A stretch of DNA of 35,817 bases, from NCBI GenBank assembly GCA_012515515.1, contig JAAYYE010000009.1:1-35817 (forward strand), written 5' to 3'. Of the stretch, positions 1 through 22,690 are shown one piece after another. The notes under the pieces were generated by a model that was given only the letters and a program-made list of their open reading frames with translations, searched no databases and had not been told where the DNA came from. Source of the DNA: Minisyncoccota bacterium. GTDB lineage: Bacteria > Patescibacteriota > Microgenomatia > UBA1400 > PJMF01. The number at the start of each line of letters is the position of its first letter. Within the stretch, counting starts at the first letter, position 1. A program made the position numbers and the translations under genes.

Positions 1-91
1 TATTAAATCTAATAAAATGCTGAAATATCAATCTAAAATATTATTAAATCTAATAAAATGCTGAAATATCAATCTAAAATATTATTAAATC
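1..91. repeat. 41-bp direct tandem repeat, about 2.2 copies (1-41, 42-82, partial 83-91)
   Basis: tattaaatctaataaaatgctgaaatatcaatctaaaatat is repeated exactly at 1 and 42; the partial third copy starts at 83. Lies at the window edge and overlaps the start of the first ORF. Confidence 0.95.
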
Positions 92-1044
92 TTTTTATTT
101 TACTGTGTTTTTTAGCAATTGGTATAAAAGATGTTCGGGCAAGTAATGAGGTCCTGGGCATGCACATTTTGCAGCCAGAAGAACTCAAGCATGTGCGCAT
201 GATTTTTGAGGATGATGAGTGGCGCTATACCACTATTCCTCTAGCCACTAGCGATACGCAAAACTGGCAGCGTTGGCAAAAATTTTTTGATGAAGCTTAT
301 CGACTTAAATTGATTCCGATTATTCGTTTAGCAACCAGCTATGATAGCGAGCAACAGCATTGGACAATCCCCACGCGCAAGGAAATTGTTAATTTGGTTG
401 CTTTTTTATCAAGTTTAAATTGGCATCAAAAGGAAAAACTGGTAGTTGTTTTTAATGAAGTTAATCACGCTCAAGAATGGGGTGGTAGAATTGATCCGCT
501 AGCTTACACGCAGGTTTTAAAATTTACTAGTAATTGGTTGCGCAGCGAGGGTTTAAATTATAAGGTTTTGCCAGCAGCACTTGATTTAGCCACAGCTAAT
601 ATTTTTCCAACTATGGAAGCTTTTAGTTATTTAGAAACAATGCTCCGCGTTGATCCAGAGATTTTTACTTATATTGATTATTGGAATTCTCACTCTTATC
701 CAAATCCAAACTTTTCAGCTTCACCCAAGACTAATGGGCAAAATTCTTTAAGAGGTTTTATTTATGAATTAAATTTTTTAAAAAACAAAACGGGTTTAGA
801 TTTTCAAACATTTATTACTGAAACTGGCTGGAAATCAAGCTATATGATTAATTTTTATTTAAGCGATTATTATGCCTATGCGCTCAAAAATATTTGGAGT
901 GATGAACGAGTTGTGGCAGTTACCCCTTTTGTGTTAAAAGGCGATCCAGGACCTTTTGCCCAGTTTGGTTTTGTGGATGCTAGTGATTTACCCACTATTC
1001 AAGCTAGTGCACTAAAAAAAGCTTTAAAAAAAATATCGCCTTGA
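58..1044 (+). CDS. Secreted/membrane-anchored TIM-barrel glycoside hydrolase-like protein
   Basis: 328-aa ORF with hydrophobic N-terminal signal segment; 'VVFNEVNH' (NE) and 'ITETGW' (E) motifs resemble the acid/base and nucleophile strands of clan GH-A enzymes. Confidence 0.55.
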   Translation: MLKYQSKILLNLFILLCFLAIGIKDVRASNEVLGMHILQPEELKHVRMIFEDDEWRYTTIPLATSDTQNWQRWQKFFDEAYRLKLIPIIRLATSYDSEQQHWTIPTRKEIVNLVAFLSSLNWHQKEKLVVVFNEVNHAQEWGGRIDPLAYTQVLKFTSNWLRSEGLNYKVLPAALDLATANIFPTMEAFSYLETMLRVDPEIFTYIDYWNSHSYPNPNFSASPKTNGQNSLRGFIYELNFLKNKTGLDFQTFITETGWKSSYMINFYLSDYYAYALKNIWSDERVVAVTPFVLKGDPGPFAQFGFVDASDLPTIQASALKKALKKISP

Positions 1045-13597: not shown

Positions 13598-14476
13598 ATG
13601 CCAGAATTACCTGAAGTTGAATCGCTAAGAAAAAATTTAGCTCCAGTCTTGTTAGAAAAAAGGATTAGAGACATTCACCTATTGAGAGAAAAAAGCTTTC
13701 CCAATTTTGCAGAAAATAAGAGTTTATTAATTGGTCAGCAATTTATTGATGTCAGGCGTCGGGCAAAAATACTCGACCTGGTGTTAAGTAATAGTCAACA
13801 TTTATTGATTCATTTAAAAATGACTGGACAATTAATTTTTCTTGATAAAGATGGTCAACGCGCAGGTGGCGGTCATCCGACTGCTGATTGGCTTAATGAT
13901 TTGCCCAGTAAACATACCCGAGTAATTTTTGATTTAGAAGATCGAAAACAAAGAAACAGTCAACTCTTTTTTAATGACATGCGAGTTTTTGGTTGGCTCA
14001 GACTCAAAGCACAAGATCAACTTTCACAAGAATTTGTTCACTATGGCTTAGATGTTAACGATCCCAACTTAAATATCAAATATTTATTAGAGAAAGCTAA
14101 AAATCGGCAGATTAGCATTAAGCAATTTATTATGGATAATCAGGTTTTAGCTGGAGTTGGTAATATTTATGCGAGTGAAGCGCTGTTTAGAGCGAAAATT
14201 TCCCCTCTTAGGAGAGCTAATAGCTTGAGTAAAATTGAAATGACTCGCTTATTATTAGAAATGCAGCAAATAATTGAGACAGCTATTCTTTCTGGTGGCA
14301 CTACTTTTGACGGTCATTATGTTGGAGTTGATGGTTTGGCTGGTTCCTATCAAGATCAATTGCTGGTTTACGGTCAAGAAAATGCTATTTGTCCAGATTG
14401 TGGCCGGGATTTTAAAATCAAAAGAGTTAAGCTGGGCGGAAGAAGCAGTTTTTATTGCGAACGTTGTCAGCGCTAA
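13598..14476 (+). CDS. mutM: Formamidopyrimidine-DNA glycosylase (Fpg/MutM)
   Basis: 'MPELPEVESLRKNL' N-terminus; 'QVLAGVGNIYASEALFRAKISPLR'; C-terminal zinc finger 'CPDCGRDFKIKRVKLGGRSSFYCERCQR'. Start set at ATG 13598 because Pro2/Glu3 must be N-terminal. Confidence 0.97.
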   Translation: MPELPEVESLRKNLAPVLLEKRIRDIHLLREKSFPNFAENKSLLIGQQFIDVRRRAKILDLVLSNSQHLLIHLKMTGQLIFLDKDGQRAGGGHPTADWLNDLPSKHTRVIFDLEDRKQRNSQLFFNDMRVFGWLRLKAQDQLSQEFVHYGLDVNDPNLNIKYLLEKAKNRQISIKQFIMDNQVLAGVGNIYASEALFRAKISPLRRANSLSKIEMTRLLLEMQQIIETAILSGGTTFDGHYVGVDGLAGSYQDQLLVYGQENAICPDCGRDFKIKRVKLGGRSSFYCERCQR

Positions 14477-14522
14477 ATACTTAGTTGCCGGCGTTAAATA
14501 CTTAGTTGCCGGCGCTAAATAC
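14471..14522. repeat. 21-bp tandem repeat, about 2.5 copies, spanning the stop codons of two convergent genes
   Basis: cgctaaatacttagttgccgg (14471-14491), cgttaaatacttagttgccgg (14492-14512), cgctaaatac (14513-14522). Confidence 0.97.
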
Positions 14523-15522
14523 TCAATAATTTTCTCTTTTTTTTCAACAAGAGCAGGGTTTTATTTAAAATTGCTTGGCTGTCTAAGTGATATTTGCTTA
14601 ATAATTGTTGGGCAGTTCCCGATTCACCAAAGGTATTGTTGACGGCAACAAACTCAGTTAGCAAGGGTTTACTATTTTTTTCTCCTAAATTATTGAGGAG
14701 TTGTTGAGCTAAATAAGCATTAAAACCACTGCCCAATTGTTCTTCACTAATAATCAATAGGGCTTGGGTTTTTTGGCAACTCAGTAAAATAGATTCGAGA
14801 TCGAGGGGTTTTAGTGAAATTAGATTAATTAATTCAGCCCTAATCCCGAGTTGCTGTAATTCAAAACAGGCTTGAACAGCTTGATGAGCAATAGTTCCCG
14901 ACACAACAATAGTTAAATCTTTGCCAGAAGTTAGAACTTGGGCTTTATCTAGAGAAAATTTGTTTGAGTCTTCTCGCTTGTTAATTAAATTTTTTAAGGA
15001 AAGTTCTAAATCCGCCACAGCCAAGCGACTTAAGCGCAAATAACTTGGACCAAGATCTTTAGCCAGAGCAAGAGTGGCTAGCTTGGCTTGCTTGGCATCA
15101 GCTGGAGAAACAAGTCGCATATTTGGCAAGCTGATCATGAGGCTTAGGTCTTCTAAAGCTTGATGAATCGCTCCATCTTCGCCAGTAACCAGACCCGCAT
15201 GTCCCCCAACAATTTTCAGGTTAAGATTTGAATAGGCTATATTTCTTATTTGATCAAAATTGCGAGCTGGATTAAAAGAAGCAAAACTAGTGGCAAAAGG
15301 TATTTTACCAAGCAAGCTTAAGCCAGCGGCTACACCAATCATATTTTGTTCTGCCACGCCACATTCAACATATTGACTAGGAAATTGCTTTTTAAAGTCT
15401 GCCAGCTTCAAAGAATCACTTAAATCTGCAGATAAAGCCATTATGTTTGGATTAACTTGTGCGGCTTTTACTAAGCCGGCAGCAAAACCATCTCTAGTGG
15501 CAAGTAGTTGGTTTTCACTCAT
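14515..15522 (-). CDS. Transketolase, C-terminal half (pyrimidine-binding and C-terminal domains)
   Basis: 'ALSADLSDSLKLADFKKQFPSQYVECGVAEQNMIGVAAGLSL', 'FASFNPARNFDQIRN', 'GEDGAIHQALEDLSLMISLPNMRLVSPADA'. Confidence 0.94.
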   Translation of the reverse strand: MSENQLLATRDGFAAGLVKAAQVNPNIMALSADLSDSLKLADFKKQFPSQYVECGVAEQNMIGVAAGLSLLGKIPFATSFASFNPARNFDQIRNIAYSNLNLKIVGGHAGLVTGEDGAIHQALEDLSLMISLPNMRLVSPADAKQAKLATLALAKDLGPSYLRLSRLAVADLELSLKNLINKREDSNKFSLDKAQVLTSGKDLTIVVSGTIAHQAVQACFELQQLGIRAELINLISLKPLDLESILLSCQKTQALLIISEEQLGSGFNAYLAQQLLNNLGEKNSKPLLTEFVAVNNTFGESGTAQQLLSKYHLDSQAILNKTLLLLKKKRKLLSI

Positions 15523-16387
15523 GATCGTTTTGTCTTTTAATTCTTAACTCATGCATGGCACTTTCAAATTCCCTTTTATTGGGAGCTTTGCCGTGCCAGC
15601 GATAATCATCCTCCATAAATGATACGCCTTTTCCTGGAATGCTGTGGGCAATTAAGGCTACTGGCTGCTTTTTATTATTTTTAGCTTGGGTGAGTTTGTC
15701 TTGCAGATCCTCAAAATCATGAGCATCAACTTCAAGAACATGGAGACCAAAAGCAATCAATTTTAATTTTAAATCTCCTAGAGAGAGAATTTCCCTAGTT
15801 TTACCAGAGATTTGTATTTGATTGTAATCGATGATGAAAGTTAAATTGCGCAGTTGATAATGAGCGGCAAACATATAGGCTTCCCAACTTTGTCCCTCTT
15901 GCTGTTCTCCATCGCTTAATAAACAAAAAACGTGATTTTTTCTTTCAGCTAATTGCAGACCATAGGCTAAACCAGCCGCTTGAGATCCTCCCTGCCCCAA
16001 AGAGCCAGCTGTAATTTCAATACCGGGCAAAGTTTTTGGATCGATATTTTCCCCAGCCATGAGTAGGTGCGGATGACCCTGTAAGCGACTATTAATCAGG
16101 CGAAAACTCGCCAACTCTTCTCTGGCAAAATATTTTTGTTGAGCTAGAACAGCGTAGAGAGCGGGACAGATATGTCCATTGGACAGCAAAAAATAATCAC
16201 GCTTTTCCCAAGTAGGTCGTTGGGGATCATGACGCAAAATACCAGTGGCGTATAAACATAAGATTAAATCAATCATGCCCAAGCTGCCCGCAGGATGTCC
16301 GCTTTGGGCTTGATAAATCATGGATAGAATATCTTGTCTAAGTTTAAAAGCGGTGTTTCGTAGCTGGGCAGGCTTGGTAATTTTCAT
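15515..16387 (-). CDS. Transketolase, N-terminal half (TPP-binding)
   Basis: 'QSGHPAGSLGMIDLILCLY', 'RDYFLLSNGHICPALYAVLAQ', 'LPGIEITAGSLGQGGSQAAGLAYGLQL', 'LSDGEQQEGQSWEA'; 8-nt overlap with the downstream half. Confidence 0.95.
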   Translation of the reverse strand: MKITKPAQLRNTAFKLRQDILSMIYQAQSGHPAGSLGMIDLILCLYATGILRHDPQRPTWEKRDYFLLSNGHICPALYAVLAQQKYFAREELASFRLINSRLQGHPHLLMAGENIDPKTLPGIEITAGSLGQGGSQAAGLAYGLQLAERKNHVFCLLSDGEQQEGQSWEAYMFAAHYQLRNLTFIIDYNQIQISGKTREILSLGDLKLKLIAFGLHVLEVDAHDFEDLQDKLTQAKNNKKQPVALIAHSIPGKGVSFMEDDYRWHGKAPNKREFESAMHELRIKRQNDHE

Positions 16388-22608: not shown

Positions 22609-22690
22609 GCCGTTTAATGTTTATTTGTCCTCGCCGTTTAATGTTTACTTGTCCTCGCCGTTTAATATTTACTTATCTTCGCTGTTTAAG
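22609..22690. repeat. 24-bp tandem repeat, 3 copies plus a partial, spanning the gatC stop codon
   Basis: gccgtttaatgtttatttgtcctc (22609-22632), gccgtttaatgtttacttgtcctc (22633-22656), gccgtttaatatttacttatcttc (22657-22680), gctgtttaag (22681-22690). Confidence 0.97.

What the first reader, a model, noticed from the sequence alone, without database searches (positions are those of the whole stretch)
14471..14522. 21-bp tandem repeat carrying the stop codons of two convergent genes (mutM and transketolase)
mutM ends at TAA 14474-14476 in copy 1, and the opposing transketolase gene ends at TAG (complement of 14515-14517) in copy 3. Each full copy has an in-frame TAA for mutM (14474, 14495, 14516). 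Collapsing the repeats gives one CTAA in which the two stops overlap. Most of the intergenic gap is therefore the duplication itself. This suggests slippage or duplication was tolerated, or selected, at an overlapping convergent end, perhaps to separate the genes or add back-up stops.
Basis: partly seen in the sequence, partly recalled or inferred. Interest (0 to 1): 0.68.

Follow-up and report, generated by a model that had tools for sequence, protein, structure and literature searches.

The report
Tandem duplication separating two overlapping genes
In one small-genome bacterium, a 21-letter DNA stretch spanning the shared stop codons of two facing genes was copied twice in tandem; both proteins kept their ends and the genes came apart, which is a simple, probably neutral route for losing a gene overlap.

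Summary
The repeat is real: three 21-bp copies at 14463-14525. It starts 11 bases inside mutM and ends in the opposing transketolase C-subunit gene. Each copy carries a TAA in the mutM frame; the transketolase stop lies in copy 3. Two same-genus species keep the same gene pair, without repeats, and there the two stops overlap in one tetramer (CTAG, CTAA). The copies differ at four sites. Two successive 21-bp duplications with four point changes reproduce the array exactly, so an assembly error is unlikely. Neither protein changes length.

The unit is found nowhere else in this genome or in 41 family genomes, so it is not a mobile element. It is one of many short tandem duplications in this genus, about half of which overlap a stop codon. 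I found no support for selection for back-up stops: periods of stop-spanning arrays are not biased to multiples of three. A terminator role is weak: the array folds into a hairpin, but no U-tract follows directly, and the trend did not repeat in new data. Best reading: replication-slippage duplication, tolerated because it spans both stops, resolving a gene overlap.

The parts
13598..14476 (+). mutM (formamidopyrimidine-DNA glycosylase), 292 aa, ends ...CERCQR-TAA
   Evidence: Pfam PF01149 and PF06831; translation
14515..15522 (-). transketolase C-terminal subunit, 335 aa, ends ...KRKLLSI-TAG
   Evidence: Pfam PF02779 and PF02780; translation
15515..16387 (-). transketolase N-terminal subunit, overlapping the C-subunit start
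   Evidence: Pfam PF00456; ORF list
14463..14483 (+). repeat copy 1: last 11 bases of mutM before the stop, then the mutM TAA
14484..14504 (+). repeat copy 2: two derived changes giving GCCGGC; extra TAA in the mutM frame at 14495
14505..14525 (+). repeat copy 3: shares the two derived changes with copy 2; holds the transketolase stop (complement of 14515-14517) and a mutM-frame TAA at 14516
22609..22689 (-). second array of the same kind in the window: 24 bp x 3.4 at the gatC 3' end, each copy carrying a TAA in the gatC frame; absent in both sister species

Best explanation
An ancestor had mutM and the transketolase C-subunit gene converging with their stop codons overlapping in one CTAA. A 21-bp segment spanning both stops (11 bp of mutM end, the stop overlap, and the last codons of the transketolase end) was duplicated in tandem, most likely by replication slippage. 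After a few point changes a 21-bp stretch of the doubled region was duplicated again. Each gene reads into the array from its own side and meets its original stop in the first copy it enters, so both proteins kept their ends while the genes moved from a 4-bp overlap to a 38-bp gap. Shown: the copies, the overlapping state in both relatives, the unchanged protein lengths, and the order of events by parsimony. Inferred: slippage as the mechanism, and near-neutrality as the reason it was kept.
For: Orthologous junctions in G001 and G002 have gap -4 (CTAG, CTAA) and no array, against 38 in the window. mutM and transketolase end at the same relative codon in all three. Two duplications, with three point changes between them and one (14494) after, reproduce the 72-bp sequence exactly. 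The unit is found only here among 42 family genomes. The genus has many such non-coding micro-duplications: 24 in 127.5 kb of non-coding DNA against 4 in 104.8 kb in other family and order members, P=0.0009. Stop overlap among non-coding arrays is 12 observed against 7.0 expected (P=0.02); starts 6 against 7.5. Arrays inside genes are 28/29 multiples of three; stop-spanning ones are not. Parallel cases: gatC, a 30-bp duplication with the stop in G002 where G001 has one copy, and a 16-bp duplication touching both stops of another convergent pair.
Against: With two relatives, the alternative (an array in the ancestor, lost twice) is less parsimonious but not excluded. The excess at stops is modest and was tested in a partial genome sample with a simple ORF caller. 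The density difference between genus and others may partly reflect base composition. Neutrality was not measured.
Confidence: 0.82

Rival explanations
1. The array is kept because the copies pair into a hairpin that stops or protects both transcripts, a bidirectional 3'-end element that the overlapping ancestor lacked.
For: Copies 2 and 3 pair through GCCGGC and the adjoining near-palindrome TAAATACTTA; z about -2.3 on the transketolase strand. Both derived changes shared by copies 2 and 3 perfect the GCCGGC palindrome. Four convergent arrays folded better than the other junction arrays in the first sample (P=0.016).
Against: No U-tract follows the stem directly on either strand; no terminator was called here and no Rfam match. 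mutM-sense folding is no better than shuffles. The convergent trend did not repeat in new data (2 against 6 arrays, P=0.86). The sister species do without it.
Confidence: 0.13
2. Selection for back-up stop codons in frame.
For: Period 21 gives in-frame stops for both genes at 21-nt spacing; the gatC array does likewise.
Against: Multiples of three are not enriched among stop-spanning arrays (6/13, P=0.24). The first mutM stop is already UAA.
Confidence: 0.03
3. Assembly artefact.
For: The genome is a draft in 26 contigs; reads were not available.
Against: The copies differ at four sites in a nested pattern; the 63-bp array is shorter than a typical short read; independent arrays of the same kind occur in the sister genomes.
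Confidence: 0.02

Closest known systems
Mycobacterium tuberculosis rnc-fpg1 tandem repeats (VNTR3239/ETR-F), PMC2734929
   Same: Lineage-specific tandem repeats filling a junction that in relatives is only a few bases from stop to start; the neighbour is also an fpg/mutM gene (apparently coincidence).
   Different: Co-directional genes, repeats upstream of fpg1, complex 55- and 79-bp units, polymorphic between strains and linked to expression. Here it is a convergent pair, 21-bp units, and the unit contains both stop codons.
Tandem repeats of Borg elements, PMC9879509
   Same: Units near 20 bp that may start inside the end of an ORF; units inside ORFs divisible by three, intergenic ones mostly not; absent in close relatives.
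   Different: Borg arrays are perfect repeats in archaeal extrachromosomal elements; these are diverged and lie among ordinary housekeeping genes.
Mycobacterial interspersed repetitive units (MIRU), discussed in PMC12548453
   Same: Short repeats at gene junctions that spare the neighbouring gene.
   Different: MIRUs are a dispersed family and appear to be mobile; this unit occurs at one site only.
Convergent 4-bp gene overlaps (CTAA, TTAA, CTAG, TTAG), PMC2174442
   Same: The two relatives show exactly this class, as does the collapsed array.
   Different: The passages I read treat the origin and phase of overlaps, not their loss by duplication.

Membership tests
Short tandem repeat locus (VNTR-like minisatellite) | Head-to-tail copies of a 10-60 bp unit | tested here: met
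   period 21, 2.9 copies, 90% matches
Short tandem repeat locus (VNTR-like minisatellite) | Copy number varies between close relatives | tested here: met
   one copy-equivalent in G001 and G002, three in the window; variation within the species not testable
MIRU or other dispersed repeat family | Unit present at many sites | tested here: not met
   2 matches, both in this array; none in 41 other family genomes
Convergent 4-bp stop/stop overlap (ancestral state) | Both stops inside one CTAR or TTAR tetramer | tested here: met
   CTAG in G001 and CTAA in G002; the window array collapses to CTAA
Intrinsic (rho-independent) terminator | GC-rich stem followed directly by a U-tract | tested here: not met
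   stem present, no adjacent U-tract on either strand

The most novel reading that the evidence does not exclude
Micro-tandem duplication spanning a shared stop is a recurrent route by which convergent gene overlaps are lost: it separates two genes without changing either protein, and in this genus it has acted at several junctions, some of them hit independently in two species.
Probability: 0.4. Interest if true: 0.55.

Novelty: new variant of a known kind. Interest (0 to 1): 0.38.

Why it matters
Work on overlapping genes has concentrated on how overlaps arise; one survey says published studies addressed creation but not loss (PMC4161906). Here the overlapping state survives in two relatives and the steps of separation can be read in the copies. 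It offers a concrete signature (a repeat unit that contains both stops) that can be counted across genomes.

Tried and rejected
Mobile or dispersed element: rejected, single site, no phage match. Known RNA element: no Rfam match. Viral relatives: none. Ancestry of the TAGTTGCC 8-mer shared with G001 at the same place: considered, then set aside, because in the window it arises at a copy junction (TA plus GTTGCC from the mutM end). Back-up stops: period test negative. Hairpins as a rule at convergent arrays: seen in the first sample, not repeated in the second. First attempt at the event reconstruction failed through an index slip and was redone. The genome-contig scan gave only distant transketolases and no name for the organism.

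Full report
What is there. The window carries three head-to-tail 21-bp copies at 14463-14525. Copy 1 starts inside mutM: its first 11 bases encode the end of ...Cys-Gln-Arg and it holds the mutM stop TAA at 14474-14476. Copies 2 and 3 repeat that end, with TAAs in the mutM frame at 14495 and 14516. The opposing gene is the C-terminal subunit of a split transketolase (Pfam PF02779, PF02780; its N-subunit follows at 15515-16387). Its stop TAG is the complement of 14515-14517, in copy 3. Because 21 is a multiple of three, the transketolase frame also meets further stops at 21-base spacing.

Not chance. The unit has no other match in the window with up to 3 mismatches, and shuffles gave none. Dinucleotide-shuffled non-coding DNA gave essentially no arrays of comparable score.

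Relatives. Two genomes of the same genus, G001 and G002, carry mutM at about 80% protein identity, with the same opposing transketolase. At the junction both lack the array and the two stops overlap: G001 reads ...CAGCGCTAGTTGCCC..., with CTAG serving both genes, and G002 ...CAGCACTAATTAGC..., with CTAA. In all three species mutM ends CQR or CQH and transketolase ends at the same relative codon (KLLSI, NLLGN, NMLAN), so 42 extra bases changed neither protein's length. The gap is -4, -4 and 38 bp. Collapsing the repeats in the window restores CTAA.

Order of events. The relatives show TGTCAG at the mutM end. Copy 1 has TGTCAG; copies 2 and 3 share TGCCGG. So the second duplication copied an already changed copy. 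Starting from one copy, a 21-bp duplication, three point changes, a second duplication of TAGTTGCCGGCGCTAAATACT and one later change at 14494 reproduce the observed 72 bases exactly. This nested pattern of differences argues against an assembly error. Slippage is the inferred mechanism; nothing here distinguishes it from other ways of making short tandem duplications.

A wider habit of this genus. In sampled stretches (not whole genomes), arrays of period 15-60 in non-coding DNA numbered 24 in 127.5 kb of non-coding sequence in the three genus members, against 4 in 104.8 kb in twelve other family and order members (P=0.0009, with G001 itself lower). In one search, which added 200 kb of the window's genome, 14 of 28 arrays at gene junctions overlapped a stop. 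Against random placement in non-coding DNA, stop overlaps were 12 against 7.0 expected (P=0.02) and start overlaps 6 against 7.5, a modest excess. Arrays inside genes have periods divisible by three (28 of 29); stop-spanning ones do not (6 of 13, P=0.24). That is what tolerance predicts: inside a gene only in-frame duplications survive, while one that copies the stop leaves the protein intact whatever its length.

Parallel cases. The gatC 3' end in this window has 24 bp x 3.4 with a TAA in each copy, absent in both relatives. G001 has its own 21-bp x 2 array at the secA end, next to mutM, absent in the window. G002 has a 30-bp duplication containing a stop where G001 has a single copy. A coaD-coaE-like gene facing an exonuclease III-like gene (names from my reading of the sequences, not tested) has a 16-bp duplication touching both stops in the window's genome and a different 21-bp array in G002. 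Another convergent pair has a 31-bp array in the window's genome and a different 37-bp array in G002. With so few shared convergent pairs I do not claim hotspots.

Function. Two adaptive readings were tested. Back-up stops: not supported by the period test. Hairpin or terminator: copies 2 and 3 can pair through GCCGGC, and the two shared changes perfect that palindrome, which is suggestive. But no U-tract adjoins the stem, the mutM-strand fold is no better than shuffles, and the tendency of convergent arrays to fold, seen first with 4 against 16 (P=0.016), was not repeated with 2 against 6 (P=0.86). I keep it as the main rival at 0.13.

Comparison with what is known. Closest is the rnc-fpg1 repeat region of the M. 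tuberculosis complex, where species outside the complex have only a few bases between stop and start (PMC2734929). Borg repeats show similar unit sizes and may begin inside an ORF end (PMC9879509). MIRUs insert at start codons in a way that spares the neighbouring gene, but they are dispersed (PMC12548453). The CTAA and CTAG tetramers are the known class of 4-bp convergent overlaps (PMC2174442). I found no paper describing loss of such an overlap by a tandem duplication that contains both stops, but my literature searches were few and limited to open papers. A 2014 survey says studies dealt with the creation of overlaps and not their loss (PMC4161906).

Limits.

Noticed in passing
window 22609-22689: 24 bp x 3.4 array at the gatC 3' end, each copy with an in-frame TAA; absent in both sister species.
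   Followed up: yes
L128:11911-11951 (G001): A different 21 bp x 2 array in the secA-mutM gap of a sister species, just upstream of the same mutM gene; absent in the window.
   Followed up: partly
L122:9901-10004 and L142:11418-11513: The same convergent junction carries different tandem arrays (31 bp and 37 bp units) in two sister species.
   Followed up: partly
L237:19050-19080 and L216:9910-9962: Second convergent pair with different arrays in two sister species; in the window's genome the 16-bp unit array touches both stops.
   Followed up: partly
window 1-92: Perfect 41 bp x 2.2 tandem repeat at the window's (and contig C8's) first base, running over the start codon of ORF 58-1044, which has no Pfam match.
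   Followed up: no
window 14484-14525: The two changes shared by copies 2 and 3 turn GTCAGC into the perfect palindrome GCCGGC; might be a templated quasi-palindrome correction or selection for a stem.
   Followed up: partly
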